Origin: Wohlfahrtiimonas populi
GTDB lineage: Bacteria > Pseudomonadota > Gammaproteobacteria > Cardiobacteriales > Wohlfahrtiimonadaceae
DNA: 44,865 bases
Direction: 5' to 3'
NCBI RefSeq assembly: GCF_002006795.1
Contig: NZ_MVDN01000004.1
Location: 37,887 to 82,751 of the forward strand
Shown here: in pieces, positions 463 to 40,826 of the stretch
Layout of the letters: each line of letters begins with the position of its first letter
Numbering within the stretch: the stretch's first letter is position 1
Notes under the pieces: generated by a model
Database searches by the model: none
What the model saw: the letters and a program-made list of their open reading frames with translations, nothing else
What the model was told of the DNA's origin: nothing
Translations under genes and position numbers: made by a program

Positions 463-552
463 TGGCGGAAGCAGCAGGAATCGAACCTACCTCAGCCGAT
501 AGGCTGACAACGGTGTTGAAGACCGCGGAGCCCCCAGGACCCATTTACTTCC
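463..552 (-). tRNA. selC: tRNA-Sec (anticodon UCA)
   Basis: Read on the minus strand this is a 90-base tRNA with encoded CCA. Features seen: acceptor arm GGAAGTA...TGCTTCC, anticodon loop CTTCAAC giving anticodon UCA, a long extra arm (GTTGTCAGCCTATCGGCTGA region) and a T arm containing GGTTCGATTCC. The UCA anticodon with a long variable arm and lengthened acceptor/T stack is diagnostic for selenocysteine tRNA; E. coli selC is 95 bases. It carries serine, which SelA converts to selenocysteine, and is delivered by SelB. It is transcribed divergently from selAB, with its own promoter about 10 bases upstream and its own terminator. Confidence 0.96.
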
Positions 553-677: not shown

Positions 678-2021
678 GTGCAATTATCCAACATCATTCA
701 GGTGGGCAAACTGTTAGATCGCCCTGAATTTTCTTCTTACATCACAACATTGGGCCGCCCTATTGTGAGTGAGATCATTCGCACTACGATTGATCAATAC
801 AAAAACCACATTATGGAAGCACAGCGTGCTGTGGATTTAGATGAATTAACAGCACAAATCACTCAGCAACTACAACTCGTGATGCGTGAAAAAACTCAGC
901 CAGTGATCAATGGCACAGGGATTTTAGTACATACAAATCTTGGTCGTTCACCGATTAATCAATCTATTTGGCATCAAGCAAGTGAAACCGTTTGCCGTTA
1001 TTCTAATTTAGAATTCAGCCTAATTGATGGCAAACGCGGTAACCGCATGGGCATGCTTAATCGCGTGATTCGCGCTTATTTTGGTGGTGATGACAATGTC
1101 ATCGTCAATAACAATGCCGCAGCCGTTCATTTGATATTGAAAGCCTTTGCCATTGGCAAAGAAGTGATTATATCCCGTAGTGAGCAAGTTCAAATTGGTG
1201 GTGGCTTTCGTATTCCTGATATTCTAGAAGAATCGGGCGCAATCATGAAAGAAGTTGGCACAACAAATATCACAACACTGGATGATTATTTAAATGCTGT
1301 GACAGAAAATACTGCGATGGTGTTATTGGTGCATCAATCCAATTATTACATTGAGGGATTCACAGAACAAGTTGACCCCAAAGAACTCAGAAAGCATTTA
1401 CCTGAACATGTCATGCTCGTCGTCGATCAGGGCTCAGGCAATCAATCGCCATTGTTACGCGATGAAACAACTGTGAGTTATTATGAAAAATTAGGCGCAG
1501 ATATCATCTCGTTCTCAGGCGATAAAATGGTTGGTGGCCCACAAGCTGGTATCATCATTGGCAAGCAAGAATATATTCAGAAAATTAAAAAGCACCCTAT
1601 GATGCGAGTTTTTCGCCCTGGCAAAGAAACTTACGCATTATTAGAAGCATTATTGATCACGCAACTGAATGATAAAAATAGTGCTGCCAATCGTACAGAA
1701 TGGGCTTTGAAACAACCTTTAAGTTGGCATAAATCATTGGCTGAAGAGCTAGCCCAAAAAATTGGCAATAATGTCAAAGTGATTAAGTCTGAATTTCTTG
1801 TGGGCGGTGGTACAACGCCAAAAGCCAAATACCCAACGTATGCTTTAGAAGTTCAATCTAAGCAATCCGCAGATGATCTATTAACTTTGCTTCGCGATCA
1901 ACCCACAGCCATCATTGGCGTGATTCATCAAGGCAAAGTTTTAATTTACCCTATTTCACTTCTCTCTTCTGAATATGATTATGTTGCTCAAGTATTAACT
2001 GAGCTAAAGGATGAACAATGA
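678..2021 (+). CDS. selA: L-seryl-tRNA(Sec) selenium transferase SelA
   Basis: PLP-dependent cytosolic enzyme that exchanges the hydroxyl of Ser-tRNA(Sec) for selenium from selenophosphate. The 447-residue product is close to the E. coli length of 463. Seen: N-terminal helical tRNA-binding region (about 1-70), a TGILVHTNLGRSP segment (about 78-90), VVDQGSG, and the PLP-lysine context SFSGDKMVGGPQAG with K283. The start is GTG at 678: an in-frame stop at 666-668 rules out anything further upstream, and the next methionine is well inside the conserved region. The stop overlaps the selB start (ATGA), so the two are translationally coupled. The tRNA substrate is encoded divergently next door. No selD and no selenoprotein gene is in this window. 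Confidence 0.97.
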   Translation: MQLSNIIQVGKLLDRPEFSSYITTLGRPIVSEIIRTTIDQYKNHIMEAQRAVDLDELTAQITQQLQLVMREKTQPVINGTGILVHTNLGRSPINQSIWHQASETVCRYSNLEFSLIDGKRGNRMGMLNRVIRAYFGGDDNVIVNNNAAAVHLILKAFAIGKEVIISRSEQVQIGGGFRIPDILEESGAIMKEVGTTNITTLDDYLNAVTENTAMVLLVHQSNYYIEGFTEQVDPKELRKHLPEHVMLVVDQGSGNQSPLLRDETTVSYYEKLGADIISFSGDKMVGGPQAGIIIGKQEYIQKIKKHPMMRVFRPGKETYALLEALLITQLNDKNSAANRTEWALKQPLSWHKSLAEELAQKIGNNVKVIKSEFLVGGGTTPKAKYPTYALEVQSKQSADDLLTLLRDQPTAIIGVIHQGKVLIYPISLLSSEYDYVAQVLTELKDEQ

Positions 2022-3805
2022 ATGCAGTTATCGGAACCGCAGGCCATGTTGACCACGGTAAATCTTCACTCATTCATGCACTCACAGGCATTAATCCTTC
2101 TCGCTTACCACAAGAATTAGAGCGATCAATGACGATTGATTTGGGCTTTGCTCATTTCACATCACCACGTGGTGATAAAATTGGCATCATCGATGTTCCT
2201 GGGCATGAACGTTTCATTCGTAACATGGTGAGTGCAGTTTGGGGTTTGGATTTAGTTTTATTTGTGGTTTCTGCCGATGAAGGCTGGGCGCCATTATCCA
2301 TGGAGCATTTACGAATCATCACTGCAATGGGGAAGCGTGAGTGCATTCTTGTACTCACTAAATGTGATTTAGTAGATAAAGCACAATTACAATTAGTGGA
2401 AGATGAAACTCTAGAGCATTTCTTGGACACAATGGGAACATTACCTGATGTTGTGCATGTTAGTGCTCATACTGGCCAGAACATAGAACAACTCAAACAA
2501 GTCATTGTGGAAAAAACCCAAAATCTACCTGAACGTGATGAATTGGATCATGGTGCTCATTTATATGTGGATCGTGTGTTTTCAGTCAATGGCATTGGCA
2601 CAACAATCACAGGTACATTGCGTGGCGCTGAAATTAAAGAAAATGATACATTAACGTTATTCCCTGGCAATCAGCCTGTTAAAGTCAGATCCCTCCAGCG
2701 TTATCACAGCCAAGTGGAAATTGCAGAGCCATATTCACGAACGGCTGTAGGCTTAAAGCAAGTGAATAAGAAATCTGTCAGCCGTGGCAGTTGCTTAGTT
2801 GCCAATCCTGATGCGATTACCATGAGCACAGATTGGATTGTACAACTCGATCCACAATTCAGCAGTTCATTGAAGAAACAAGGCGTGGTGGAAATTGCAT
2901 TAGGTACATCACACACACAAGCAAAATGCTTTGTCTATGCGGATGGGCAATTGGCTAGATTACAATTGGAAGAAGCAATTCCTGCATTTTGGGGACAACC
3001 CATGTTGATCATTCAACATGGTGGTAGCCGAATCATTGGTTCAGGTAAAGTTGCATGGTTACATCCTTTGAACCCTAAATTACGAAACCTATTACAAGAA
3101 GCGCTCACAACCATCAACATCAAAAGTGCAGATTTAGAATCCAAAATTGCCTTAGAAATTCAGCTCAATGGTTATACTTTGCGTCATGCCAATATTAAGC
3201 AGCCTGATCATTCAGAAGTTTTAGGTGCTTGGTGGATTTTACCTAAAGCCAAGGCAAAACTTCATGATGCTTGTGCAAATGTATTGAATAATGCCATCAG
3301 CGCGATGACAATTGAGGACATTGCTAAAAACATTCAGCATCCGCTCACATTAACAGAAGCAATGATTGATCAAGGTTGCGCGAGTAACGAATGGCAGAAA
3401 ATCAAAGGTGGCATTGTTAATTCGTTCAATCTTTCGAGTGATGCTCTGCCTGATAATCTCCAAAATTTATATGATGATATTAAAGCTTGTGGCATTTCAG
3501 GCTTTGAAGCAGGGAAATCTCGCATTGTAGGTATTAAACGCTTACTGCGTGCATTGACAGAGAAAGACCTCATTGTGCCAACAGAAGATGATATTTTCTT
3601 CGCCTTAGAGGTTTATAACGGCATTGTGAAACAGATCATGATCAACCGTACAATCGGCGAGTTATTTACGATCGCAGATGCAAGAGAACGCATTGAGCTT
3701 TCCCGCAAACAATTTATTCCTCTATTGAACCGTATGGAAAAAGATGGCTGGGTAAAACGCATCGAAAATGATCGTGAAGTTTGCAAAGAATATGTAGAGA
3801 ATTAA
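2018..3805 (+). CDS. selB: selenocysteine-specific elongation factor SelB
   Basis: GTPase that carries Sec-tRNA(Sec) to UGA codons by recognising the SECIS hairpin of the mRNA. 595 residues, near the E. coli length of 614. The EF-Tu-like GTPase domain is at the N terminus: GHVDHGKS (9-16), DVPGHE (59-64) and TKCD (114-117). Beta-barrel domains follow (about 175-340), then a C-terminal half with winged-helix repeats, ending in a basic segment (REVCKEYVEN) as expected for SECIS RNA binding. The ATG overlaps the selA stop by four bases, so expression is coupled. The next gene begins ten bases after its stop. Confidence 0.97.
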   Translation: MNAVIGTAGHVDHGKSSLIHALTGINPSRLPQELERSMTIDLGFAHFTSPRGDKIGIIDVPGHERFIRNMVSAVWGLDLVLFVVSADEGWAPLSMEHLRIITAMGKRECILVLTKCDLVDKAQLQLVEDETLEHFLDTMGTLPDVVHVSAHTGQNIEQLKQVIVEKTQNLPERDELDHGAHLYVDRVFSVNGIGTTITGTLRGAEIKENDTLTLFPGNQPVKVRSLQRYHSQVEIAEPYSRTAVGLKQVNKKSVSRGSCLVANPDAITMSTDWIVQLDPQFSSSLKKQGVVEIALGTSHTQAKCFVYADGQLARLQLEEAIPAFWGQPMLIIQHGGSRIIGSGKVAWLHPLNPKLRNLLQEALTTINIKSADLESKIALEIQLNGYTLRHANIKQPDHSEVLGAWWILPKAKAKLHDACANVLNNAISAMTIEDIAKNIQHPLTLTEAMIDQGCASNEWQKIKGGIVNSFNLSSDALPDNLQNLYDDIKACGISGFEAGKSRIVGIKRLLRALTEKDLIVPTEDDIFFALEVYNGIVKQIMINRTIGELFTIADARERIELSRKQFIPLLNRMEKDGWVKRIENDREVCKEYVEN

Positions 3806-21725: not shown

Positions 21726-22466
21726 ATGGCTGTTTCAACAAAAAAAGTGAGCTGGTATAAAAAATACGCAAGCTATAAATACTATATTCCTTTAGCAAAC
21801 GCGATCATTCCCTACTGTTTTTGGGGAAGCTTAATCATTGTGATTATAGGATTGGCTTTAGGCTTAGGTTTTGCACCAGCTGATTACCAACAAGGAAACA
21901 GCTTTAGAATCATCTATATTCACGTGCCTGCTGCAATGTTATCCACATCACTTTATATGGCAATGGCTGTGACAAGCTTATGCTTCTTAGTATGGAAAGT
22001 AAAACTATTACCACTCGTTGCCCGCAGCATGGCAACAGTCGGCGCAGTATTAACATTGGTTTCGCTATTCACAGGTGCTGTTTGGGGCGCGCCAACATGG
22101 GGAACTTGGTGGGTTTGGGACATTCGCTTAACATCGCAATTATTACTTTTATTCTTCTACATTGGCTACATCGCATTTGATCATGCGATTGAAGACCGCC
22201 AAACGGCTGATATTTTCACATCCATTTTAGCTGTCATCGGCATTGCTGTTGCATTGCTGGTTAAACTTTCAGTGTACTTTTTCAATTCTCTACATCAAAA
22301 GAGCACACTTTTTGCATCCGGCGGGCCGAAAATTCCGATGGATATGTTGTTACCATTGATTTTAATGATCGTAGCTTACTCATTGTTTACGTCAGGTTAC
22401 ATTCTGAAAAAGAGCGTGAATCTAATCAATCGTGACAGAGTGATGAAACATTATCTAAATCAATAA
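21726..22466 (+). CDS. ccmC: heme exporter CcmC
   Basis: Inner-membrane protein of 246 residues with six hydrophobic helices that places heme on CcmE. Seen: GFAPADYQQGNSFRIIYIHVPAA with the heme-ligand histidine H66, and the WWD motif WGTWWVWD (125-132). It is the first gene of the ccm run, which is unusual because ccmA normally leads. The N terminus is about 15 residues longer and more basic than in E. coli. Confidence 0.96.
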   Translation: MAVSTKKVSWYKKYASYKYYIPLANAIIPYCFWGSLIIVIIGLALGLGFAPADYQQGNSFRIIYIHVPAAMLSTSLYMAMAVTSLCFLVWKVKLLPLVARSMATVGAVLTLVSLFTGAVWGAPTWGTWWVWDIRLTSQLLLLFFYIGYIAFDHAIEDRQTADIFTSILAVIGIAVALLVKLSVYFFNSLHQKSTLFASGGPKIPMDMLLPLILMIVAYSLFTSGYILKKSVNLINRDRVMKHYLNQ

Positions 22467-22484
22467 TTATATAGTGGGGGCGCT

Positions 22485-22655
22485 ATGACGTTTGCATTTG
22501 GGAGCTTTGCAGAATTTCTGCAAATGGGAAAACATGGTCTCTATGTTTGGTTGAGTTACGGATTTTTCTTAATCTGTGTACTTGGTCTAATTATTCCGCT
22601 ATTTAGCGAGAGTAAAAAGTTAAAACAAATTATGAAGCAGGAAGGAATTGAATAA
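22485..22655 (+). CDS. ccmD: heme exporter subunit CcmD
   Basis: A short gene of 56 codons that is easily missed. It begins MTFAFGSFAEFLQMGKHGLY, then one membrane helix (VWLSYGFFLICVLGLIIPLF) and a basic tail SESKKLKQIM. The conserved FxxMGxHGxYVW opening is diagnostic of CcmD, which links the CcmABC complex to CcmE. It lies 18 bases after ccmC with a GGGGGCG ribosome site; its TAA overlaps the ccmE ATG by one base. Confidence 0.93.
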   Translation: MTFAFGSFAEFLQMGKHGLYVWLSYGFFLICVLGLIIPLFSESKKLKQIMKQEGIE

Positions 22656-23122
22656 TGACACCAAAACAGAAACAACGTGGCATCATCGTTGTTGCATTAG
22701 TAGTGATCACACTTGCAGCAATCGGCTTACTCATTTATGCATCAAGAAGCGAATTGAACTACTACTATTCGCCCATTGAAGTAAAAGAAGGTAAAGCACC
22801 TTTAGAACGTTCGATCCGTATTGGTGGTTTAGTTGCACCAGGTTCAGTTGTGAAAAGTACAGAAACAATCGACATTGCGTTTGACATTATGGATGGTAAA
22901 GACCGCGTTCGTGTTACTTATGACAAAATGTTGCCTGATTTGTTCCGTGAAGGCCAAGGCGTAATCGCAACAGGGCTTTTAAAGGATCAAGATAATTTCG
23001 TTGCTACAGAAATTTTAGCGAAGCATGATGAAACATACATGCCACCTGAAGTGAAAGAATCTTTAGAAAAATCTGGCATTGTGATCGATGAAAATTCCAG
23101 ACATCCTGGCTCACAGCCTTAA
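22655..23122 (+). CDS. ccmE: cytochrome c maturation heme chaperone CcmE
   Basis: Periplasmic, membrane-anchored heme carrier, 155 residues. One N-terminal helix (about 9-29), then the OB-fold domain. The covalent heme histidine is H124 in AKHDETYMPPEV, with Y128 as second ligand, as in E. coli. It takes heme from CcmC and hands it to CcmF/H. It overlaps ccmD by one base. Confidence 0.97.
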   Translation: MTPKQKQRGIIVVALVVITLAAIGLLIYASRSELNYYYSPIEVKEGKAPLERSIRIGGLVAPGSVVKSTETIDIAFDIMDGKDRVRVTYDKMLPDLFREGQGVIATGLLKDQDNFVATEILAKHDETYMPPEVKESLEKSGIVIDENSRHPGSQP

Positions 23123-23135
23123 TTGAGGAGCTAGC

Positions 23136-25115
23136 ATGTTACCATTTGGCGAATTAGCACTTTATATTGCACTAGCAGCATCTCTATTGTTGCTATTCCT
23201 ACCATTAGTAGGATTATCCACTCATAACATTAAACTCATGCAAACAGCAAAACCGCTGACAGCATGGGTTTTCTTTATGCTTCTAGTTTCATTCTTATGT
23301 TTAGGCTATGCCTTTTATGTGAATGATTTCAGTTACTCATACGTTTTCAAAAACTCCAATACACAACTCCCTGCAATCTTCAGATTCACAGCAATCTGGG
23401 GTAGCCATGAAGGTTCTGTATTGCTTTGGGTATTAACATTATCATTATGGATGTACGTTGCGACTCTGTTCATGCGTAAAGTGCCGATTGAATTGACAGC
23501 AACAACACTTGCAATTTTGGGTGCTATTTCTGCAGCATTCATTGCATTTGTCATCTTCACATCTAACCCATTCGATCGTATGTTAGATAATCTTGCTTTC
23601 GATGGTCGTGACTTAAATCCATTATTACAAGATGTTGGTTTAATCATCCACCCACCATTATTGTATATGGGCTATGTTGGTTTTGCGATTCCTTATGCTT
23701 TCGTATGTGCAATCTTAATCAATGGTTATATTGATCGTACAACTGTGCGTTGGTTGCGTCCTTGGGTGTTAGCAGCTTGGGGCTTTTTGACATTAGGTAT
23801 CACTGTTGGTAGCTGGTGGGCTTATTATGAATTAGGCTGGGGCGGCTGGTGGTTCTGGGATCCTGTTGAAAACTCATCATTGATTCCTTGGATTTTATCT
23901 ACAGCATTGCTTCACTCATTGATTACCACTGAAAAACGCCAAGTATTCTCTGTTTGGTCAGTGTTGATGGCAATCTTGTGTTTCTGCTTAAGCGTACTAG
24001 GGACATTCCTTGTTCGTTCAGGCGTATTAACATCAGTTCACTCATTTGCTGCTGACCCTCGCCGTGGTGCAATCATCTTGATGATTTTGGCAATGGTTGT
24101 GATCTTCGGTATCGCGCTCTTATTGTTCCGCTCAAGTCGTATTCGTCAACAATCTACAGTCGCTTTAGTGTCTAAAGAAACAGGCATCTTGTTGAATAAC
24201 ATCTTCTTATCCGTAGTGTGCTTCATTGTTGTTCTAGGCACATTGTACCCATTGATTGTTGATATGTTAGCCATCGGTAAAATCTCCGTGGGTCCGAACT
24301 TCTTCAATAAAACAGTGAATCCTTTAGCGATGATTTTATTAGTGATCATGGGTGTAACGCCAATGATTCGCTTTAAGAAAGATCAACTAAGCCGAATTAA
24401 GAAGCAATTAATTTTCATGGCAATTGCATCCTTGATCATGGGCCCATTATCTAATGCGCTTTATGTAATGTATGTGAATAACTTAAGCCATAATAATGAA
24501 CCTGCCTTACCTTTAATCAATCCAATGGTAACGTTGGCATTGATCTTATGTTATTGGGTGTTCTTTGGCATCTTGGCTGAAATTGCACTACACAAACCTA
24601 AAAATGCAGGCTTTATTAAAGGCTTTTTCTCTCAATCATTATCTCGCGTTGCTATGAACTTAGGTCACTTTGGTACAGTTGTGATGATCATCGGTATCAC
24701 AATGACAAGTTACTACAGCGTTGAAGCGGATCGTTTATTGCGTGTTGGCCAAACAGAAGCTGTACAAGGTTATGACTTTAAATTGGAAAACCTCCAAGAC
24801 ATTAAAGGACCAAACTATACAGCGACCAAAGGAACATTCACTGTCAGCTTCCAAGGTGAATTTTTACAAATGATGTACCCTGAAAAACGTGTTTACGCTG
24901 CAAGTGGCATGCCGATCAGTGAAGTTGCATTGCGTGCATCATTATTGGATGACTTATACATCGCATTATCAGAAGAGCGTCCGGGTCAAAGTTGGGCAAT
25001 CCGTTTATATGTTAAACCTTTCATTCGTTGGATTTGGTTAGGCGGCATCATCATGGCTGTAGCAGCTGTGATCGCGATGTTCAGCTTACGTCGTCCTGAA
25101 CGCTCTGAGAAATAA
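23136..25115 (+). CDS. ccmF: cytochrome c heme lyase subunit CcmF
   Basis: 659-residue inner-membrane protein with about 15 helices, the core of the heme ligation complex. Seen: FRFTAIWGSHEGSVLLW, HPPLLYMGYVG and the WWD motif ELGWGGWWFWDPVENSSLIPW spanning about 232-252, plus HSFAADPRRG. The conserved histidines around these motifs are present. It has a GAGGAG ribosome site and lies 13 bases after ccmE. Confidence 0.97.
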   Translation: MLPFGELALYIALAASLLLLFLPLVGLSTHNIKLMQTAKPLTAWVFFMLLVSFLCLGYAFYVNDFSYSYVFKNSNTQLPAIFRFTAIWGSHEGSVLLWVLTLSLWMYVATLFMRKVPIELTATTLAILGAISAAFIAFVIFTSNPFDRMLDNLAFDGRDLNPLLQDVGLIIHPPLLYMGYVGFAIPYAFVCAILINGYIDRTTVRWLRPWVLAAWGFLTLGITVGSWWAYYELGWGGWWFWDPVENSSLIPWILSTALLHSLITTEKRQVFSVWSVLMAILCFCLSVLGTFLVRSGVLTSVHSFAADPRRGAIILMILAMVVIFGIALLLFRSSRIRQQSTVALVSKETGILLNNIFLSVVCFIVVLGTLYPLIVDMLAIGKISVGPNFFNKTVNPLAMILLVIMGVTPMIRFKKDQLSRIKKQLIFMAIASLIMGPLSNALYVMYVNNLSHNNEPALPLINPMVTLALILCYWVFFGILAEIALHKPKNAGFIKGFFSQSLSRVAMNLGHFGTVVMIIGITMTSYYSVEADRLLRVGQTEAVQGYDFKLENLQDIKGPNYTATKGTFTVSFQGEFLQMMYPEKRVYAASGMPISEVALRASLLDDLYIALSEERPGQSWAIRLYVKPFIRWIWLGGIIMAVAAVIAMFSLRRPERSEK

Positions 25116-25124
25116 GGAGTTAAT

Positions 25125-25676
25125 ATGAAAAAACCTGTAATCGTAGGCATCACCATTGCTGTGTTAGTGGGCATTTTTGGCTTCTTCTTCACAACTTTGG
25201 GCAATGATCCAAGCAAACTGCCTTCACAATTAGAAGGGAAAGCTTTGCCTGAATTCACTGCCAATAAGCTTTCTGCACCGGGTAGCATTGCGCAAATTCT
25301 CACGAATGATGATATCAAAGGCCCTGCATTAGTGAATGTATGGGCAACTTGGTGCCCAACTTGTCGTGATGAGCACGAAACATTGAATGTGCTCAAAACA
25401 CAAGGCGTGACTATTTATGGTGTGAACTATAAAGATGATCCCAAATTAGCTTATGAATGGCTCCAAAATCTTGGAAATCCTTATCTATTTAATTTTTTAG
25501 ATATGAGCGGTGCTGTGGGTATTGAACTCGGCGTTTATGGCGCACCTGAAACATTCTTCGTGGACAAAAACAATGTGATCAAATATCGTCATGTAGGTGC
25601 AATCTTGCCTGACATTTGGAACAGCAAGTTGAAAGCGATTTATGAATCATTGGATACTGAAGGAGCACAACCATAA
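25125..25676 (+). CDS. ccmG: thiol:disulfide reductase CcmG (DsbE)
   Basis: 183-residue periplasmic thioredoxin tethered by an N-terminal helix (about 5-24). Active site WCPTC with C77 and C80 inside WATWCPTCRDEH, and GVYGAPETFFVD carrying the cis-proline region. It reduces the heme-binding cysteines of apocytochrome c via CcmH. A single base of its stop is shared with the ccmH start. Confidence 0.96.
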   Translation: MKKPVIVGITIAVLVGIFGFFFTTLGNDPSKLPSQLEGKALPEFTANKLSAPGSIAQILTNDDIKGPALVNVWATWCPTCRDEHETLNVLKTQGVTIYGVNYKDDPKLAYEWLQNLGNPYLFNFLDMSGAVGIELGVYGAPETFFVDKNNVIKYRHVGAILPDIWNSKLKAIYESLDTEGAQP

Positions 25677-26134
25677 TGAAAAAACTCTTAATGTTAGCGT
25701 TATTTTTAGGTGCTGTTGCGACTGCAAACGTGAATATCTATCCATTCAGTGATCAAGTAAGTGAAAAACGTTTCAACTCACTCATCACAGATTTACGTTG
25801 CCCAAAATGTCAAAACCAAAACTTAGCAGATTCGGATGCGCCTTTGGCGAAAGATTTAAAAGATCGTGTTTATACTATGATCAACGATGGCCGAAGTGAT
25901 GGCGAAATTTTAACTTTTATGGTGGATCGCTACGGTGATTTCGTTTTATATACGCCACCTGTTAAACCCATCACTTGGTTCTTGTGGTTTGGTCCTGCCA
26001 TCATTTTGATTGGCGTATTAGTCATCATCTTTGCTCGCCGTCGTAAACCTGCCGTTGAAACTGTCCAACCATTATCACAATCAGAAGCAGAGCAATTGGC
26101 TGAGCTGTTAAATAAAAAGGATACTCATCAATGA
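25676..26134 (+). CDS. ccmH: cytochrome c maturation protein CcmH
   Basis: 152-residue CcmH of the short type. Signal/anchor at 1-18, redox pair LRCPKCQNQNLADSDAP with C42 and C45, then a C-terminal membrane helix (about 100-121) and a short cytosolic tail. It holds apocytochrome cysteines reduced for CcmF. In E. coli CcmH is fused to a TPR domain; here that part is the separate ccmI gene, overlapping by four bases (ATGA). Confidence 0.95.
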   Translation: MKKLLMLALFLGAVATANVNIYPFSDQVSEKRFNSLITDLRCPKCQNQNLADSDAPLAKDLKDRVYTMINDGRSDGEILTFMVDRYGDFVLYTPPVKPITWFLWFGPAIILIGVLVIIFARRRKPAVETVQPLSQSEAEQLAELLNKKDTHQ

Positions 26135-27867
26135 TTTTCGCATCTTTCCTCCTTTTCGCGCTGACAATGTTGGTAATCTTTTACCCATTGACTCGCTCTC
26201 AATCAGCACAGCAAGAAGTCACATTGCAAGATCTCTATCAAAAGAACTATGTTGCAACAGAAAAGCGTCTTTCTGCTGAATTAAGTAGCGGCAAGTTAAC
26301 GCAGGATGACTATGACATTCAAAATGCTGAAGCTGCACGTGATTTATTAAAAATCAACCAAAAAAATCGTACTAACCTTTCTAAACCTGCACGTTTATTG
26401 GTGGTATTGATTGCATTGCTCTTCCCTGTTTTAGCCATTGGCGGTTTTTGGGCATTTTCTTATACGCCGGAAACACGCACATTTGATGCAGAGCGTTCTC
26501 GCTTAATCAATGAATTCACAGAATGGCGTGAAGTGATCCCAACATCTGAGTTGGATTCATTGAATGGTATCTTAGCCATTGAACCGCAACCTCGTAATCC
26601 TGAGATCTTCAATGAATTGAAATACGGTTTCCCTGCTTTGTTCTTCATGAGCGCAAAAGATACACATGACAACATTCCAACGTTAAAATTATTGGGTAAA
26701 TTGTTGTACGATGTGAAATGGCTCAGTGCTTCTCACGAAGTTTACACACGTGTTTTATCATTAACGCCAAATGATTTCATTGCTAACGCAATGGTGATCG
26801 ACATTGAAATGCAAAGTGCTAACAATAAGATTACACCGGCAATTCAAGCGAAAATGGAACGTTTCTTCGCAATCTTCCCAAAAGAAACCTCTATGCGCGT
26901 GATGTATGCTCAAGCGCTGTATGACAATCAAATGATTGAAAAATCTGTAGAGCAATGGCGCATTTTACGTGAATTATTTGCACAAGACAGAGATCCTGCA
27001 CGTAAAGAGCAAGTGCAACAAACATTGCAAGCAATTGATATGATCATCATGTCAGTTTCTCAGCAAGCGATGGAAACAGCACAAGTACGCAACTATGTGA
27101 TCGATCTAAAAACATTTGCTGATTTAGATTGGAACCAATTATCTACACCATCAATCTTGACGTTGTATATGATTGATCAAGAAGATAATACTTCTGTGGC
27201 TTATAAAGAAGTATTGATCACGCCAAATATGCAATTCCCAACAGAATTATCATTGAATGACTTTGATCGCTTTGCTGATGTGAAAAGCCCAATCCGTAAC
27301 TTTGAACATTTAGCAGTATTTGGTGAAATCACTAATGTTGAAAATGGTGAATCTGTTTATGTCACAGATCTATCTCAATTAACAAAAGGTGCTTATGAAA
27401 GTGCATTGATGTTTGAGCCAAACTCAGAAGATCACGCATTCTCTGAGCCTATGCAAAAAACTGTTGATTTAGTGAAAGCGAAAAAAGATCAACGCATCTT
27501 AGTGCAAGTAAATGCACCAAATGCTGATCTAAGCGCATGGCCGGATGATGCAACTTTAAGCTTATTCATCTCTCCTGCAGGTTCTCGCATGCCATTGGCA
27601 GCTAAGAAAATCCCATCAGCGAAGAACTTAACGTTCCCAATAACTGTTGAAATCACTGATGACAACAAATTAATGCAAGGCACACCAAGTTTATTCACGA
27701 TGGATAATCTAGAAGTGGGCGGTCGTTTAAGCCAAGGTTCAGATGTTGTGGGTAAAGCAGGTGATATTGAAAGTGCTAAACAAGCAGTTTCACCGAGCAA
27801 AGCAAACGTGATTATTTTAGATCAAGTGCGTGAAGAATCTAAAGCTTCACCCATCATGGCTCAATAA
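26131..27867 (+). CDS. ccmI: cytochrome c maturation TPR protein CcmI
   Basis: 578-residue apocytochrome chaperone. Two membrane helices (about 1-17 and 89-111) with a cytosolic loop between, then a long periplasmic part. Residues about 180-310 look like TPR helices (KLLYDVKWLSASHEVYTRVL, FAIFPKETSMRVMYAQALYD); about 380-570 is a beta-rich domain typical of long CcmI proteins. It presents apocytochrome c to the CcmF/H complex. It is longer than many CcmI proteins (about 400). Confidence 0.9.
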   Translation: MIFASFLLFALTMLVIFYPLTRSQSAQQEVTLQDLYQKNYVATEKRLSAELSSGKLTQDDYDIQNAEAARDLLKINQKNRTNLSKPARLLVVLIALLFPVLAIGGFWAFSYTPETRTFDAERSRLINEFTEWREVIPTSELDSLNGILAIEPQPRNPEIFNELKYGFPALFFMSAKDTHDNIPTLKLLGKLLYDVKWLSASHEVYTRVLSLTPNDFIANAMVIDIEMQSANNKITPAIQAKMERFFAIFPKETSMRVMYAQALYDNQMIEKSVEQWRILRELFAQDRDPARKEQVQQTLQAIDMIIMSVSQQAMETAQVRNYVIDLKTFADLDWNQLSTPSILTLYMIDQEDNTSVAYKEVLITPNMQFPTELSLNDFDRFADVKSPIRNFEHLAVFGEITNVENGESVYVTDLSQLTKGAYESALMFEPNSEDHAFSEPMQKTVDLVKAKKDQRILVQVNAPNADLSAWPDDATLSLFISPAGSRMPLAAKKIPSAKNLTFPITVEITDDNKLMQGTPSLFTMDNLEVGGRLSQGSDVVGKAGDIESAKQAVSPSKANVIILDQVREESKASPIMAQ

Positions 27868-27869
27868 AT

Positions 27870-28511
27870 ATGACATTTGCTGAATTTACTTTAGCCATTA
27901 AAGATGTCAGCGCGACGCGTAATTACCGCAAAGTTTTTACGCCTGTTTCGCTGACATTACAAAATGGCATGAGCCTTTATATCGAAGGTGAAAATGGCGC
28001 AGGAAAGACAACTTTCCTGCGCGTTATTGCGGGCTTAAACAATATCTATTTGGGCAATATTCTCTATAACAATGTTGATCGTCAAGAGCTTGCGCACACT
28101 TATAATCACAATATTCTCTATGTTGGGCATGCGCTTGGCTTAAAAGAAGATTTGACTGCCTTTGAAAACATTCATGCGATGCTCAAAATTCAAAATGTAC
28201 AGCGTACAGATGAAGAGATCCGCACAGTGTTTGAAATGCTTTCCATTCCTGCACAAGATCGTGCCATCCGCTTTTTATCCGCAGGTCAAAGACGAAGAGT
28301 TGCACTGTCTCGTTTATGGTTAGAACCCAAAACCATTTGGATTCTCGATGAGCCATTTACAGCATTAGATAAGCGTTCTATTGAGATTTTAGAAGCCACC
28401 ATCACAGAACATTATCAAAAAGGTGGCACAGTTATTTTCACTTCTCATCAAACGCCATCAGAAGGTGTGTATAATCATCACCATATTATTGAAAGCTATA
28501 GGAAAGAATGA
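27870..28511 (+). CDS. ccmA: heme export ATP-binding protein CcmA
   Basis: 213-residue ABC ATPase. Walker A GENGAGKT (40-47), signature LSAGQRRRVALSRL, Walker B IWILDEPFTALD, switch histidine in TSHQTP. With CcmB and CcmC it releases heme-loaded CcmE. It starts two bases after ccmI and overlaps ccmB by four. ccmA usually opens the operon; here it comes eighth. Confidence 0.96.
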   Translation: MTFAEFTLAIKDVSATRNYRKVFTPVSLTLQNGMSLYIEGENGAGKTTFLRVIAGLNNIYLGNILYNNVDRQELAHTYNHNILYVGHALGLKEDLTAFENIHAMLKIQNVQRTDEEIRTVFEMLSIPAQDRAIRFLSAGQRRRVALSRLWLEPKTIWILDEPFTALDKRSIEILEATITEHYQKGGTVIFTSHQTPSEGVYNHHHIIESYRKE

Positions 28512-29176
28512 GTGTATTCACTGCGATCATTCAACGTGATCTACAATTAGGCATGCGCCAACGCACAGAATTACTGACGCCCATGATCTTTTTCTTGATC
28601 GTTGTGAGTTTGTTTCCACTCGGTTTAGGGTTGGATAATGAAAAAGTCATGCGTGATGTTTCACCTGCCATTTTATGGATTGGTGCTCTATTGTCGAACA
28701 TGTTGATCATGGATCGCTTATTCAAAAGTGATTATGATGATGGTTCTTTAGAGCAATTGATGCTATCAGGCTCGCCACTCGTTGTGGTTGTATTTGCCAA
28801 GATCATTGCACATTGGTGCTTAACTGCTGTGCCACTTATCATTGTTTCACCCATCTTGGGCTTAATGCTCTATTTTTCTGTGCCACAAGCACTAGAAACC
28901 ACATTCCTTTTACTCATTGGCACACCAGTTTTAAGTTGCATTGGTGCCATTTGTACAGCTTTAACACTACAATTAAAACGTGCAGGCTTATTATTGAGTA
29001 TCATTGCACTACCATTATTTTTACCTGTACTAATTTTTGGCGTACAGGCAACACTTCGCATCGTTGAAGGACATTCTGTGATCGGCTTTTATGCTGTATT
29101 TGCAGCCCTCGACTTGATCACGCTTGCCGTCGCCCCATTGATTACAGCTTTTGCACTACGCATTAGTCTTAACTAA
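28508..29176 (+). CDS. ccmB: heme exporter membrane subunit CcmB
   Basis: 222-residue inner-membrane protein with six helices, the permease partner of CcmA. Seen: RDLQLGMRQRTELLTPMIFFLIVVSLFPLGLG and YDDGSLEQLMLSGSPL, which are standard for CcmB. ATGA overlap with ccmA. The AAA+ gene begins 17 bases after its stop. Confidence 0.96.
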   Translation: MSVFTAIIQRDLQLGMRQRTELLTPMIFFLIVVSLFPLGLGLDNEKVMRDVSPAILWIGALLSNMLIMDRLFKSDYDDGSLEQLMLSGSPLVVVVFAKIIAHWCLTAVPLIIVSPILGLMLYFSVPQALETTFLLLIGTPVLSCIGAICTALTLQLKRAGLLLSIIALPLFLPVLIFGVQATLRIVEGHSVIGFYAVFAALDLITLAVAPLITAFALRISLN

Positions 29177-29193: not shown

Positions 29194-31290
29194 ATGACAA
29201 AAAAAACAATACCATCCACCAACATGGAATATTCTGAACAATTGCCACCTTTGGTACATTCATGGATTTTAACCATTATTTTGGATTTAGGTGGCCATCG
29301 TGAATTTATCCATAAGGATTTTTTCAGTGATGATCAACTAGCTACAGCACTTTCATTGGATAAATGGATCAACCATAAGCCACCATTGAACCGTGCAGAT
29401 ATTTTAAAAACATTGCGCGAACAGCAAGAAAAACTCTTGGCTGATCCAACATTGTTCACAACAGCATATAATCATGATCTTCGCCACAACTTAGACAATC
29501 TCAAAACATTGATTGATCTCTCTGATGTGGAATGTACTTTATTAGAGTTCACATTGATCACGTACAATGAAACATTGTTGAACAATGCATTGGATTTATT
29601 GGGTGCGATTAGCTCAGATCAAATGTACCGCATTTTATCTGTACTCTTACAAAAAACACCGCAAGAAATTCGTACTGCATTTGCATCGGATGGCACATTA
29701 GCGCGCACAGGTTTAGTTCGCGTTCATCATGGCCCTTCTCTATTCTTCCGCGGCAAAGTGGATTTATTGTCTCGCAATTTTATTGAAGCGATGTTTTCAC
29801 ATGAAACAACGCCATACAATATCTTAAAAGATGTTGTTTCTAAATCTAAGCCAACAGAATTAACTTTAGATAATTTCGGTTACTTAAAAACTGAGTTATC
29901 TGTTTTAGTACCTTATTTACAGCATGCTTTGGACAATAATGAAAAAGGCGTGAATATCCTTGTATACGGCGAACCAGGCACAGGGAAAACAGAATTAGCA
30001 CGCGTTTTGGTGGAATATTTTAAAGTTTCTGCTTATGAAGTGGTTTCTGAATCTATTCAAGGCGAAGGCGTAGAAAAAGGCGAACAGCGTTTATATGCTT
30101 ATTTGGCTGCGCAAAACTTCTTCTGCAATCAAAAATCATTGATCATTTTTGATGAAATCGAAGATGTATTCTTTGATGCTTCATCAGAAGGTTTACCGAA
30201 CTTCTCGAAAGCTTGGTTCAACCATATTTTGGAAACCAATAAAATCCCAACCATTTGGATTTGTAACGATACTTACGAAATCGACCCTGCCATCATTCGC
30301 CGTTTCGATTTCACATTCCATTTGGCTCCGCCACCAAAATCAGAACGCAAAGCAATGCTCGAATCAGCATTGAAATGTTCACTCAGCCCAAATACTTTGA
30401 ATGCATTGGCATTATCGAAAGATTTAGTGCCTGCAATCATTGATCGCACTGCAAAAGTTCTCAATACTATCGAGAAATCATTGGATGTAAGCTACGATGA
30501 AGCTGCTGCTGCTATCATCAATGGCACTTTGAAAGCGCAAGGTAATGATGAAATTCGCATCGCTAAAATTGGTGGATTGAGCGAGATTTATAACCCTGCA
30601 TTCACAAATACTGATAACAATTTGGCACTATTGGCTGAGCGTTTAAAAGTATTCAATGAAGCGCGCATCTGTTTATATGGTGCTTCGGGTACTGGTAAAT
30701 CAGCATTTGCACATTACTTATCAGATTATCTCAACAAGCCTTTGCTCATCAAAAAAGTATCAGATTTAATGGATAAATATGTGGGCGAAACTGAGAAACA
30801 GATCGCAGCTGCATTCCATGAAGCAAATACAACAGGCTCAATCTTGTTAATGGATGAAGTGGATAGCTTCTTGCGTGATCGTCGCCATGCTCAGCAGAAT
30901 TATGAAGTCACAATGGTGAACGAAATGCTGACGCAAATGGAAGAATTTTCAGGTATTTTCATCGCAACCACAAACTTGATGGATCACTTAGATCAAGCAA
31001 TGCTCCGCCGTTTTGACTTTAAAGTGAAATTTAATTACTTAACATCAGAACAAGCTTGGTTGCTTTTCAATGAACAATGCCGTTATTTGGGCTTTAAAGA
31101 GATTGATCCTGCATTGGAAGAGAGCTTTAAAAAACTCACAAGCTTAGCGCCTGGTGACTTTGCGATTTCTGCCCGCCAAGCAAAATTGGGCGTGATCACA
31201 AAACCTGAAGAAATCATCGCACAGCTTGTTAAGGAAAATGACTTGAAACAAGCCAAAGGCACCACGATCGGGTTTGTGGCTGGCAAATAA
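29194..31290 (+). CDS. tandem AAA+ ATPase of unknown role
   Basis: 698-residue cytosolic protein with two AAA+ modules. First module: Walker A GEPGTGKT (259-266), Walker B IIFDEIED with D320, IRRFDF. Second: GASGTGKS (496-503), Walker B LLMDEVD with D554, LRRFDF. Both have the acidic pairs for hydrolysis and RRFD arginines. The first 240 residues have no recognised motif and are probably helical. The architecture recalls CDC48/SpoVK-like unfoldases, but without a named family I assign no target. It follows ccmB by 17 bases with a weak ribosome site and precedes the RelA/SpoT-like gene by ten, so it is in the same message. Base composition is like the ccm genes. Confidence 0.85.
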   Translation: MTKKTIPSTNMEYSEQLPPLVHSWILTIILDLGGHREFIHKDFFSDDQLATALSLDKWINHKPPLNRADILKTLREQQEKLLADPTLFTTAYNHDLRHNLDNLKTLIDLSDVECTLLEFTLITYNETLLNNALDLLGAISSDQMYRILSVLLQKTPQEIRTAFASDGTLARTGLVRVHHGPSLFFRGKVDLLSRNFIEAMFSHETTPYNILKDVVSKSKPTELTLDNFGYLKTELSVLVPYLQHALDNNEKGVNILVYGEPGTGKTELARVLVEYFKVSAYEVVSESIQGEGVEKGEQRLYAYLAAQNFFCNQKSLIIFDEIEDVFFDASSEGLPNFSKAWFNHILETNKIPTIWICNDTYEIDPAIIRRFDFTFHLAPPPKSERKAMLESALKCSLSPNTLNALALSKDLVPAIIDRTAKVLNTIEKSLDVSYDEAAAAIINGTLKAQGNDEIRIAKIGGLSEIYNPAFTNTDNNLALLAERLKVFNEARICLYGASGTGKSAFAHYLSDYLNKPLLIKKVSDLMDKYVGETEKQIAAAFHEANTTGSILLMDEVDSFLRDRRHAQQNYEVTMVNEMLTQMEEFSGIFIATTNLMDHLDQAMLRRFDFKVKFNYLTSEQAWLLFNEQCRYLGFKEIDPALEESFKKLTSLAPGDFAISARQAKLGVITKPEEIIAQLVKENDLKQAKGTTIGFVAGK

Positions 31291-31300
31291 GGAGTACTCA

Positions 31301-32317
31301 ATGGCATCATTAGATTTTGAAAAAGAAAAAACAGCTTTTAGAGATTATTGGAATCAGCACAACAAAACTCTTGAGCAAGCTAAAGAAACTTTTGTAGTGA
31401 TTATAAATTCACTCATTGCCAAAGATTTTCAAATATCAGCTATTTATGGAAGAGTTAAAGATAAAGAAGAGTCTATTAGAAAATTTGCTCATAAATACCA
31501 ATCAAAATTAGAATCTGAAGGAAAACCATATGAAATAAAAGATCACATCACAGATCTAATTGGTTTACGCCTTGTAACTCTATATGAACCTGATGTTAAA
31601 AAAATTAAAGACTTGCTTTTAACGGAATTTAAAGTAATTGGTGTCACAGATAAAATCTCTAGTATGGAATCCAAGGAAGACTCTTTTGGCTATAAAGGAT
31701 TACATGTTGACTTACAATTAAATAGCAAACGATCTGATATGTCAGAATATATTAATTATGCAGATTATACATTTGAACTACAAATTCGAACTATTATTCA
31801 AGACGCTTGGAGCGTCTTAGACCATAAAATAAAATATAAAAAAGCAATTCCTATAGAATTTAAACGACGTATTAATACATTAGCCGCTCTCTTTGAATTA
31901 GCAGACAGAGAATTTATGAGTATTAAAAATGATACTGAACTAATGGAGCAAAATATTAAAAAAGCTGCTTTAGAAGAAGAAAACTTATTAGATGCTTTCA
32001 ACTTCCTCAAAGTTGTATCTGAACATTTTTCTGATTATGAATTTAAAGGTTTTAAAATAGATGGTTTTGTTGAGTCTATAATATCTACAGAGCCTATGAC
32101 CGCAAAAGAGTTTAACACTATACTCTCAGATCAAAAATCAAAAATTGATTTATATAGTCATTATTTACAACAATCTTCTGATCCTCATACTATGAATCCA
32201 TATACAGAAATTAGACATATGCTATATGTTTCAAATAAAGAAAAATTTTCAGATATTCTTTATAAAAAACAAAAAGATAACTTTGATCTATGGTTAAAAG
32301 ATAACGATAAATCGTGA
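31301..32317 (+). CDS. RelA/SpoT-domain protein (putative small alarmone synthetase)
   Basis: 338 residues from the ATG at 31301, chosen for GGAG six bases upstream; the frame is open a little further left. The nucleotidyltransferase domain fills about 40-195: GRVKDKEES (50-58) with R51, K53 and S58 in the RxK...S position, DLIGLR (85-90), GYKGLH (130-135), ELQIRT (159-164) with the ExQ pair, and AW...H..YK (169-180). No HD hydrolase domain is present, so it should only transfer pyrophosphate, making (p)ppGpp, ppApp or pyrophosphorylating tRNA. Residues 196-338 are helical and unassigned. It is much more AT-rich than its neighbours (two sampled 60-base stretches are 25% GC), suggesting transfer. 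No obvious antitoxin gene flanks it. Confidence 0.82.
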   Translation: MASLDFEKEKTAFRDYWNQHNKTLEQAKETFVVIINSLIAKDFQISAIYGRVKDKEESIRKFAHKYQSKLESEGKPYEIKDHITDLIGLRLVTLYEPDVKKIKDLLLTEFKVIGVTDKISSMESKEDSFGYKGLHVDLQLNSKRSDMSEYINYADYTFELQIRTIIQDAWSVLDHKIKYKKAIPIEFKRRINTLAALFELADREFMSIKNDTELMEQNIKKAALEEENLLDAFNFLKVVSEHFSDYEFKGFKIDGFVESIISTEPMTAKEFNTILSDQKSKIDLYSHYLQQSSDPHTMNPYTEIRHMLYVSNKEKFSDILYKKQKDNFDLWLKDNDKS

Positions 32318-32326
32318 CCATAAACC

Positions 32327-32351
32327 AAAAGCCCTCAACGAGGGCTTTTTT
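32327..32351 (+). terminator. terminator at the end of the ccm run
   Basis: Nine-base-pair stem AAAAGCCCT (32327-32335) with 32341-32349, loop CAACG, followed by a T run. It closes the rightward run; the A-rich left side may also help terminate the convergent NYN gene. Confidence 0.85.
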
Positions 32352-32358
32352 GTTGGAT

Positions 32359-33036
32359 TTAGGCAGTCATTTTGGTGAGGAAATCTTGCATTCGATTGGC
32401 ATTATATTTCACAAGATTACCTTGGTTTTTGATGTGCACAACATCCAAAAATTCCATTCGGCTGATCACATGGCTCACTAAATGTTCGCGTGCTCTATCC
32501 GTCATATCACGGGCTTTAAGCTGTGCACGAATTGAATTCCGTAAGCCTTCCAATTTCACAGGGCGAGAGCAGTCTTCGATCTTGTGAAGCATTCTGCACA
32601 TTTTAATGAGCACAGAATCGAACTGTAATTCTTTATCACTGCGTGTTGTGCCTACACGCTTGGCTTTTTTATCAGGCGCACGATTCACTAGATTAATGAT
32701 GGCATCGAAATCTTTATCATTGGAATAAATTTCAAAGCGATCATATTGCTCAAAGTAACAGCCGAGCATAAAAGTAATGCCAAAATCCGCAGAATTATTA
32801 GCTGTATCGCCCATTTTAATGAGCTCTAAGCGACCTTGTATCACAAAGTTGCTTAATGCAGTTAACCAATCTAGGGGAATTTTCACGCCAGTGTTGGCGT
32901 AGCAGATCACAACTTTATGATATTCTTTGAACTCTAGGATGAGCTCGGTGATCTTTGAGGGGCAGTTTTCAATATCTATGAACAGAATTGAGCGTTGAGA
33001 ATTATCGGGTAAGTTAATAATTGTTTTATCTCGCAT
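32359..33036 (-). CDS. NYN/PIN-like nuclease-domain protein
   Basis: 225 residues. The N-terminal half has the acidic residues of the NYN (LabA-type PIN) ribonuclease fold: FIDIEN with D21, E23 and N24; SADFGITFMLG with D84; and YSNDKDFDAI with D107, D109 and D111. The second half (about 140-225) is helical and basic, with LEGLRNSIRAQLKARDMTDRAREHLVSHVI, and may be a nucleic-acid binding or OST-HTH-like region. RNA cleavage is inferred from the fold only. A strong AAGGAG ribosome site precedes the ATG at 33036. It converges on the RelA/SpoT-like gene. A shortened relic of this gene lies at about 39744-39862. Confidence 0.75.
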   Translation of the reverse strand: MRDKTIINLPDNSQRSILFIDIENCPSKITELILEFKEYHKVVICYANTGVKIPLDWLTALSNFVIQGRLELIKMGDTANNSADFGITFMLGCYFEQYDRFEIYSNDKDFDAIINLVNRAPDKKAKRVGTTRSDKELQFDSVLIKMCRMLHKIEDCSRPVKLEGLRNSIRAQLKARDMTDRAREHLVSHVISRMEFLDVVHIKNQGNLVKYNANRMQDFLTKMTA

Positions 33037-39911: not shown

Positions 39912-40826
39912 ATGAAAAACTACAATATTGAAAATCAACAATTTGTGTTGACAGAATCCGCAGATGCTTATCTACGTTTCATACCTTTTTCAAGCTTGCC
40001 ACAAGCAGAAAATGATACTGGCTTAGCACAATTAACTGAACGAGTTTTAATGGCTAAACATGATGCGTTTATTGGCCATTATACGGACTATATACTGTTC
40101 AGCTTGACGCTTAAAAACCATGATGATTTCAATAATAACGAAGCGATTGTAATGATTATTTATAAAAATTATACGCTCTTTTTCTATGACGAAACGCTCA
40201 CAACAGCAGAGATTTATGTCGATCACATTAACTACATGCTTAAGCAATTGACAGATTCCTCTCTTCCTAATTTGCTGATTCCTTATATATTGATTCGCTA
40301 TGACTTATTAACAGATCGTAGATTTTTAATGGAGATCGAGAATACAATTTTAGATATTGAAGTATCTTTTAGTCATAAATTGGTAGATCCACAAAATAAA
40401 ATTTTATCATTGCGCAAAATCCTCTCTAATTATAAGCACCATTATTTATCATTATCTGATTTGATGGAAGATATGATGGGAAATAATTCTAATCTTCTAG
40501 GTAATGAAGTTGACCAAAATTATCAAAGACTTTCAAATAAATTAACTCGCCTATATAAGTACACAGAGATGTTAAGCGAATATGTCTCTCAAGTGAATGA
40601 TCGCTATCGTGCCCAGATGGATCTCAATTTAAATAAAATAATGAAAACATTCACTATTATTTCGGTAATTTTTATGCCCTTAACCTTGATTGTAGGTTGG
40701 TATGGTATGAATTTTGACATACCTGAATTAAAGTCGAAATATGGCTATTTATATGTGACTGGATTATCGATTTTTATGCTCATTGCTTCACTTTTGTACA
40801 TAAAAAAACGTGGATTTTGGGATTAA
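39912..40826 (+). CDS. corA: CorA-like divalent cation channel
   Basis: 304 residues. A long cytosolic N-terminal part is followed by a helical stalk (about 165-240, LRKILSNYKHHYLSLSDLMEDMM) and two C-terminal membrane helices (about 242-262 and 278-296). The selectivity signature GMNF is at 265-268 (GWYGMNF), typical for CorA magnesium/cobalt channels. GAGGT precedes the ATG. It is AT-rich (one sampled 60-base stretch is 28% GC). It is a single-gene unit; there is no clear T-run terminator on its own strand. The N-terminal domain is divergent, so the transported ion is inferred. Confidence 0.88.
   Translation: MKNYNIENQQFVLTESADAYLRFIPFSSLPQAENDTGLAQLTERVLMAKHDAFIGHYTDYILFSLTLKNHDDFNNNEAIVMIIYKNYTLFFYDETLTTAEIYVDHINYMLKQLTDSSLPNLLIPYILIRYDLLTDRRFLMEIENTILDIEVSFSHKLVDPQNKILSLRKILSNYKHHYLSLSDLMEDMMGNNSNLLGNEVDQNYQRLSNKLTRLYKYTEMLSEYVSQVNDRYRAQMDLNLNKIMKTFTIISVIFMPLTLIVGWYGMNFDIPELKSKYGYLYVTGLSIFMLIASLLYIKKRGFWD

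What the first reader, a model, noticed from the sequence alone, without database searches (positions are those of the whole stretch)
31301..32317. AT-rich alarmone-synthetase-like gene attached to the end of the cytochrome c maturation operon
The protein has the RelA/SpoT nucleotidyltransferase motifs but no HD hydrolase domain, is about 25% GC in sampled stretches against about 45% in neighbouring genes, and carries an unassigned 140-residue C-terminal domain. It begins ten bases after the AAA+ gene and ends at the operon terminator. Single-domain synthetases of this kind are known both as stress enzymes and as toxins (toxSAS) in phage defence; a link to ccm genes is not something I know. 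The foreign composition suggests recent capture into a long housekeeping transcript.
Basis: partly seen in the sequence, partly recalled or inferred. Interest (0 to 1): 0.6.

Follow-up and report, generated by a model that had tools for sequence, protein, structure and literature searches.

The report
Mobile alarmone-synthetase gene in cytochrome operon
A foreign, AT-rich gene for an alarmone-type enzyme with an undescribed C-terminal domain has slotted into the end of a housekeeping operon, at a spot where a sister species carries a known anti-phage gene, which makes it a good candidate for a new single-gene phage-response switch.

Summary
The gene at 31301-32317 is real and intact: 338 aa, RelA/SpoT synthetase domain, no hydrolase domain. 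It is foreign. It has the lowest GC3 (16.5%) of 264 sampled genes of its genome. The host is a Wohlfahrtiimonas species (inferred). None of five congeners has the gene after the AAA+ gene; two have nothing there, one has a fused AriAB (PARIS) anti-phage gene, and two have other small ORFs. W. chitiniclastica carries a 51% identical copy elsewhere, from a separate capture (AU test p = 2.6e-4). Full-length relatives (270 loci in GTDB genomes, five prophages, plasmids) often sit among defence genes and have no conserved partner gene. All catalytic residues are invariant in 60 of 60 homologues. The catalytic domain is RelP/RelQ-like rather than CapRel-like. The C-terminal domain (residues 226-338) is confidently predicted as five helices and matches no Pfam family or solved structure. 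More distant mobile synthetases share the catalytic domain (104 of 105 pairs) but not the C-terminal domain (4 of 105), so the architecture is modular. Best reading: a self-contained, CapRel-like growth-arrest gene with a new regulatory or sensor domain, captured by the ccm transcript. Substrate, trigger and defence activity are untested.

The parts
31301..32317 (+). small alarmone-synthetase-like gene, 338 aa, SYNTH domain plus novel helical C-terminal domain
   Evidence: Pfam RelA_SpoT 51.8 bits; AF2 model pLDDT 90.9; lowest GC3 of 264 genes
31301..31966 (+). SYNTH (pyrophosphokinase) part, residues 1-222
   Evidence: VIA Z 17.5 to RelQ 5ded, 17.4 to RelP 6ewz; A1 profile hits RelP/RelQ at about 1e-14
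31451..31495 (+). ATP-donor motif R51-x-K53 ... E57 ... K61 ... K65; the usual Ser at E57 is Glu in 60 of 60 members
   Evidence: residue roles from PMC11782079 and PMC5794853
31553..31570 (+). Mg-binding D85 and adenine-stacking R90 (DLIGLR)
   Evidence: invariant 60/60
31685..31705 (+). G-loop FGYKGLH with acceptor-base Y131 and H135
   Evidence: Y131, K132 and H135 invariant 60/60; G133 58/60
31775..31843 (+). catalytic E159-x-Q161-x-R163 and W170...D174-H175-K-x-K178-Y-K motif
   Evidence: E159, Q161, R163, W170, D174, H175, K178, Y179, K180 invariant 60/60
31976..32314 (+). undescribed five-helix C-terminal domain, residues 226-338 (motifs KVDGF and NPxTxxRHxLY)
   Evidence: AF2 pLDDT 90.7; no Pfam; no PDB match, best Foldseek E 2.5, VIA Z 4.2
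31289..31294 (+). ribosome-binding site AAGGAG overlapping the AAA+ stop codon
   Evidence: sequence
32327..32349 (+). intrinsic terminator of the operon, shared with sister species
   Evidence: same hairpin directly after the AAA+ stop in G004 and G005
29194..31290 (+). upstream two-domain AAA+ ATPase gene, conserved in the genus without the synthetase
21726..29176 (+). cytochrome c maturation genes (ccmC, E, F, thioredoxin-like ccmG, ccmH, ccmI, ccmA, ccmB) upstream in the same direction
   Evidence: ORFs; names from protein sequence (own knowledge, not profile-tested)
32359..33036 (-). convergent PIN7/NYN-domain gene that bounds the variable spot
   Evidence: Pfam PIN7 5.7e-17; present in G002, G004, G005

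Best explanation
It is a horizontally acquired, self-contained small-alarmone-synthetase gene that most likely works as a phage-responsive growth-arrest switch. Shown: it is intact, foreign, inserted between the last gene of the ccm/AAA+ operon and that operon's terminator with its own ribosome site, and it belongs to a mobile family carried by prophages, plasmids and defence islands. Inferred: it is co-transcribed with ccm; the novel C-terminal domain holds the SYNTH domain inactive and releases it on a phage signal, replacing the separate antitoxin that bicistronic toxSAS systems have; once active, SYNTH moves pyrophosphate from ATP to a nucleotide (GDP/GTP or ATP, which the RelP/RelQ-like acceptor side favours) or, less likely, to tRNA-CCA, stopping growth before the phage matures.
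For: Capture: absent after the AAA+ gene in 5 of 5 congeners; GC3 lowest of 264; two separate acquisitions in the genus (tree, AU p = 2.6e-4). Defence spot: G002 has a fused AriAB (PARIS) gene between the AAA+ gene and the equivalent terminator (PDLC02982 E 1.8e-107). Mobility: five IMG/VR proviruses (beside integrase in L025 and L026, inside the head-tail module in L027 and L028, GC 45.5% against 69.1% flanks for L027), plasmids of Paracoccus and Agrobacterium, the latter beside DUF4297-HerA. Neighbour genes of 26 mobile-clade loci hit 43 PADLOC models (TIR, TRIP13 and exonuclease effectors, DarT, AbiTii, pAgo, PD-T7-4 and others) against 19 around 26 loci of the more stable clades. No recurrent partner gene outside close relatives. 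Catalytic residues invariant in 60 of 60. Modular C-termini: SYNTH similar in 104 of 105 pairs of short synthetases, C-terminal parts in 4 of 105.
Against: No activity, trigger or defence phenotype has been measured. The Acidovorax clade keeps the gene at conserved chromosomal surroundings with near-native GC, which also suits an ordinary stress enzyme. Contact between the C-terminal and SYNTH domains was not assessed (no PAE available). The neighbour comparison has no whole-genome background rate. AT-richness is partly a family trait (mean 8 points below flanks), so composition alone overstates how recent the arrival is.
Confidence: 0.58

Rival explanations
1. It is an accessory stress-response (p)ppGpp synthetase. 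The C-terminal domain senses a metabolic cue, and the gene spreads because extra alarmone helps survival; phages carry it to tune host growth.
For: The SYNTH domain is nearest RelP/RelQ in sequence and fold and keeps the W..DH.xYK region of RelP/YwaC that CapRel lacks. The Acidovorax clade is chromosomally stable.
Against: The genome already has two long RelA/SpoT proteins. Distribution is sporadic (1 of 369 genomes across the class), in prophages, plasmids and defence islands.
Confidence: 0.25
2. It is a translation-targeting toxSAS that pyrophosphorylates tRNA 3'-CCA ends, like CapRel and FaRel2, with a non-homologous control domain.
For: Same general layout as CapRel (N-terminal SYNTH, C-terminal control domain, single gene, prophage-borne); weak match to the PADLOC model that proves to be CapRel (PDC-S33, 5e-9, SYNTH only).
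Against: Structural Z is 17.5 to RelQ, 12.2 to CapRel, 11.2 to Tas1 and 8.3 to FaRel2 (the FaRel2 chain is short and partly disordered). The H175/K178/K180 basic cluster and K132 are invariant, compatible with holding acceptor phosphates, while PMC11782079 reports a smaller acceptor patch in FaRel2.
Confidence: 0.12
3. It is functionally tied to cytochrome c maturation or to the AAA+ protein.
For: Position only: 10-base gap and shared transcript direction.
Against: All five congeners have the AAA+ gene without it, homologues sit in unrelated contexts, and another occupant of the spot is PARIS.
Confidence: 0.02
4. It is a passing, functionless insertion on its way to decay.
For: Three of 85 homologues have an in-frame stop or break; AT-rich.
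Against: The frame is full length with every family-invariant residue and a good ribosome site.
Confidence: 0.03

Closest known systems
[quoted passage not shown]
   Same: SYNTH fold and motifs; best sequence and structure matches
   Different: RelP/RelQ lack the 113-aa C-terminal domain; the Ser contacting the ATP alpha-phosphate is Glu57 in all 60 family members; 23-24% identity; here prophage- and plasmid-borne
CapRel (fused toxSAS-antitoxin, CapRel-SJ46; PADLOC PDC-S33)
   Same: one gene, N-terminal SYNTH plus C-terminal control domain, prophage cargo (PMC9712102)
   Different: only 24% identity over 93 residues of SYNTH; C-terminal domain does not align with the CapRel model and no conserved YxxY motif
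Bicistronic toxSAS (FaRel, FaRel2, PhRel)
   Same: SYNTH-only enzymes linked to mobile elements and phage exclusion (PMC11782079, PMC9712102)
   Different: no conserved antitoxin or hydrolase gene beside it; FaRel2 is a weaker structural match (Z 8.3)
PARIS (AriAB)
   Same: occupies the same insertion spot in sister species G002
   Different: unrelated protein: ATPase plus Toprim-type nuclease

Membership tests
Small alarmone synthetase (single-domain RSH) | RelA_SpoT synthetase domain above curated cut-off | tested here: met
   51.8 bits against 27
Small alarmone synthetase (single-domain RSH) | no HD hydrolase, TGS or ACT domains | tested here: met
   no such Pfam matches at E 1; structure shows SYNTH plus five helices
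Small alarmone synthetase (single-domain RSH) | donor and acceptor catalytic residues kept | tested here: met
   R51, K53, K61, D85, R90, Y131, E159 invariant 60/60; Ser to Glu57 is an exception
Small alarmone synthetase (single-domain RSH) | makes (p)ppGpp or (p)ppApp | not testable with these tools
   needs enzyme assay
CapRel / fused toxSAS | C-terminal pseudo-zinc-finger antitoxin domain homologous to CapRel's | tested here: not met
   PDC-S33, which CapRel-SJ46 matches over 11-370 of 373, matches only residues 77-244 here; no BLAST similarity of C-terminal parts
CapRel / fused toxSAS | YxxY motif blocking the active site | tested here: not met
   YSHY at 285-288 of the window protein is not conserved; other members have F or L at 288
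CapRel / fused toxSAS | toxic SYNTH released by a phage protein | not testable with these tools
   needs expression and phage tests
Bicistronic toxSAS toxin-antitoxin | adjacent conserved antitoxin gene | tested here: not met
   no recurrent neighbour beyond close relatives in 78 loci; immediate neighbours here are AAA+ and PIN genes conserved without it
Defence-island / phage-cargo gene | prophage, plasmid and defence-gene neighbourhoods; patchy distribution | tested here: met
Known fold for the C-terminal domain | match to a solved structure | tested here: inconclusive
   best Foldseek E 2.5, VIA Z 4.2; absence of a match does not prove a new fold

The most novel reading that the evidence does not exclude
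The gene belongs to a broad, unnamed class of single-gene immune receptors in which one SYNTH effector is joined to many unrelated C-terminal sensor domains and carried as lone cargo by tailed phages, an inovirus, tiny plasmids and operon-end insertion spots. The five-helix domain here would be a new phage-sensing or self-inhibition module, unrelated to CapRel's.
Probability: 0.42. Interest if true: 0.72.

Novelty: new variant of a known kind. Interest (0 to 1): 0.5.

Why it matters
CapRel showed that a fused alarmone-synthetase toxin can sense a phage protein directly. If unrelated C-terminal domains do the same job on a shared SYNTH effector, alarmone-type enzymes are a modular sensor-effector platform, and their many uncharacterised C-termini become a catalogue of phage sensors to test. 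The locus also shows defence genes (this one, and PARIS in a sister species) entering the gap between a housekeeping gene and its terminator, which would give them a ready promoter.

Tried and rejected
Functional link to ccm or AAA+: rejected, because congeners have both without the gene. CapRel membership: the sequence model covers SYNTH only. Known domain for the C-terminus: Pfam, PHROGs, PDB sequence, Foldseek and VIA gave nothing. The An_peroxidase, triosephosphate isomerase and AAA-lid hits are at noise level. C-terminal domain on other effectors: none in viral contigs. Prophage remnant at this site: no integrase recognised in the flanking ORFs (by eye) and no flanking direct repeat of 7 bases or more. 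Vertical inheritance from the genus ancestor with W. chitiniclastica: a common clade is rejected, although long branches are involved.

Full report
What is there. The ORF at 31301-32317 (+) encodes 338 aa. It starts 10 bases after the AAA+ stop codon behind an AAGGAG ribosome site and ends before an intrinsic terminator at 32327-32349 (fold z -3.5). Pfam finds RelA_SpoT (PF04607, 51.8 bits, cut-off 27) at residues 51-181 and no HD domain. Its GC is 27.9% against 38.4% for the rest of the window. In 339 kb sampled from the same genome, its GC3 of 16.5% is the lowest of 264 genes (mean 31.2%, sd 4.5) and its GC is third lowest.

Host and site. The window lies in a 2.78 Mb genome. A congener's 305,072-base contig C3 equals the W. 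chitiniclastica DSM 18708 contig of L077, so the genus is inferred to be Wohlfahrtiimonas. All five congeners keep the AAA+ gene (84-97% identical) and none has the synthetase after it. G001 and G003 go straight to the transporter gene. G004 has a 177-aa ORF and G005 a short secreted-type ORF after the terminator. G002 has a 636-aa AAA + DUF4435 protein that PADLOC calls AriAB (PARIS), E 1.8e-107, followed by the same kind of GCCCTC...GGGC terminator and the PIN gene. The interval between the AAA+ stop codon and the terminator is thus a variable spot that has taken two different cargo genes. No flanking direct repeats were found.

Recency and origin. Only 2 of 32 genomes of the order carry a full-length family member: this one and W. 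chitiniclastica, where it lies elsewhere beside an HNH-endonuclease gene and a methyltransferase gene. The two copies are 51% identical and fall in different parts of an 88-row tree; holding them together is rejected (AU p = 2.6e-4). The window protein groups with Acinetobacter, Kangiellaceae, Shewanella, Desulfoluna and a Grimontia prophage (branch support 97). These are long branches, so the exact nearest relative is uncertain.

Family and mobility. A scan of 84,980 GTDB species genomes gave 270 relatives (best 80 kept); five IMG/VR proviruses hold complete copies and a sixth a partial one. In these proviruses the gene lies beside an integrase (L025, L026), within a P2-like module (L024), or between head and tail genes (L027, L028) (module names are my reading of the ORFs). 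It is also on a 16.8 kb Paracoccus plasmid and on Agrobacterium pAt next to a DUF4297-HerA defence pair. The gene is poorer in GC than its flanks in nearly all of 78 loci (mean difference -8 points). No neighbour recurs outside close relatives, so it is a one-gene unit. Neighbours (104 genes, 26 mobile-clade loci) matched 43 PADLOC models at 1e-8, including TIR, TRIP13 and exonuclease effectors, DarT, AbiTii, pAgo, PD-T7-4 and PDC-S31/S35/M34; 105 neighbours from the Acidovorax and Desulfuromonadia-type clades matched 19. Models overlap and no whole-genome background was run, so this is a trend rather than a test.

Enzyme. By the residue roles published for FaRel2 and RelP (PMC11782079, PMC5794853), R51, K53, K61, D85, R90, Y131 and E159 are the donor, metal, acceptor and catalytic residues; all are invariant in 60 of 60 homologues. 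One family signature stands out: the Ser that contacts the ATP alpha-phosphate is Glu57 in 60 of 60, while most distant mobile synthetases have Ser. AlphaFold2 gives pLDDT 90.9. Against solved structures the SYNTH part scores Z 17.5 with RelQ, 17.4 with RelP, 12.2 with CapRel, 11.2 with Tas1 and 8.3 with FaRel2. It is catalytically competent on paper and looks more like a nucleotide-acceptor alarmone synthetase than a tRNA-modifying one, but sequence cannot settle the substrate.

C-terminal domain. Residues 226-338, predicted alone, give five helices at pLDDT 90.7. There is no Pfam family, no PDB sequence relative and no convincing fold match (best Foldseek E 2.5, VIA Z 4.2). It was never found without the SYNTH domain in viral contigs. 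Its invariant residues (F243, F248, D254, F256, R305, F328) show it is a constrained part of the protein.

A modular class. More distant synthetases on mobile elements, namely a Vibrio inovirus, Mycobacterium abscessus prophages, a Bacteroides phage-like record, a 3.5 kb Klebsiella plasmid and a Limnohabitans plasmid among toxin-antitoxin genes, match the family profile over SYNTH at about 1e-32 to 1e-41 and not over its C-terminus. Among 15 proteins, counting these, the window protein, the host's 466-aa paralogue and CapRel, SYNTH parts match in 104 of 105 pairs and C-terminal parts in 4 of 105. One C-terminus is a weak TPR match. A shared effector with interchangeable C-termini is what a sensor-effector class would look like.

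Mechanism and limits. The best-supported reading is a self-contained growth-arrest gene: the C-terminal domain restrains SYNTH and responds to infection, in the manner of CapRel (PMC9712102) but with a non-homologous domain. Gene integrity, foreignness, mobility, defence neighbourhoods and fold are shown. Co-transcription, autoinhibition, trigger, substrate and phage protection are inferred. An accessory stress synthetase remains a serious rival, because the Acidovorax clade holds the gene stably.

Noticed in passing
G000:C34:211770-213167 (-), L002 811-2211: A second AT-rich (31% GC) short RelA/SpoT gene in the same genome, 466 aa, whose C-terminus holds four copies of an 84-bp (28-aa) tandem repeat; between ABC transporter genes and a gyrA-like gene, absent from the five congeners.
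   Followed up: partly
L127 469-2379 (G002): Fused AriAB (PARIS) gene at the same operon-end spot in a sister species (PADLOC E 1.8e-107).
   Followed up: yes
L151 436-1572: A 3.5 kb ColRNAI plasmid of Klebsiella whose main cargo is a 378-aa short RelA/SpoT synthetase with an unmatched C-terminus.
   Followed up: partly
L152 3854-4864: A Vibrio filamentous phage (inovirus) carries a 336-aa short RelA/SpoT synthetase as cargo.
   Followed up: partly
L149: The Bacteroides 'plasmid' record NZ_OY725946.1 has terminase, portal and prohead protease genes and looks like a phage genome; it carries a related synthetase on the opposite strand.
   Followed up: no
L120 6389-7510 (CapRel-SJ46) against PADLOC PDC-S33: The PADLOC candidate family PDC-S33 is in effect CapRel: CapRel-SJ46 scores 290 bits over its whole length.
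   Followed up: yes
29194-31290 (+): Two-domain AAA+ ATPase of unknown role at the end of the ccm operon, conserved in the genus; relatives at 34-41% identity in some other gammaproteobacteria. Its second AAA domain resembles IetA but scores far below the NCBIfam cut-off.
   Followed up: no
32359-33036 (-): PIN7/NYN nuclease-like gene bounding the variable spot; present in G002, G004 and G005; no match just downstream of the AAA+ gene in G001 or G003.
   Followed up: no
463-552 (-) and 678-3805 (+): Selenocysteine tRNA next to selA- and selB-like genes.
   Followed up: no
39912-40826 (+): 304-aa gene with 31% GC, also low for this genome; not identified.
   Followed up: no
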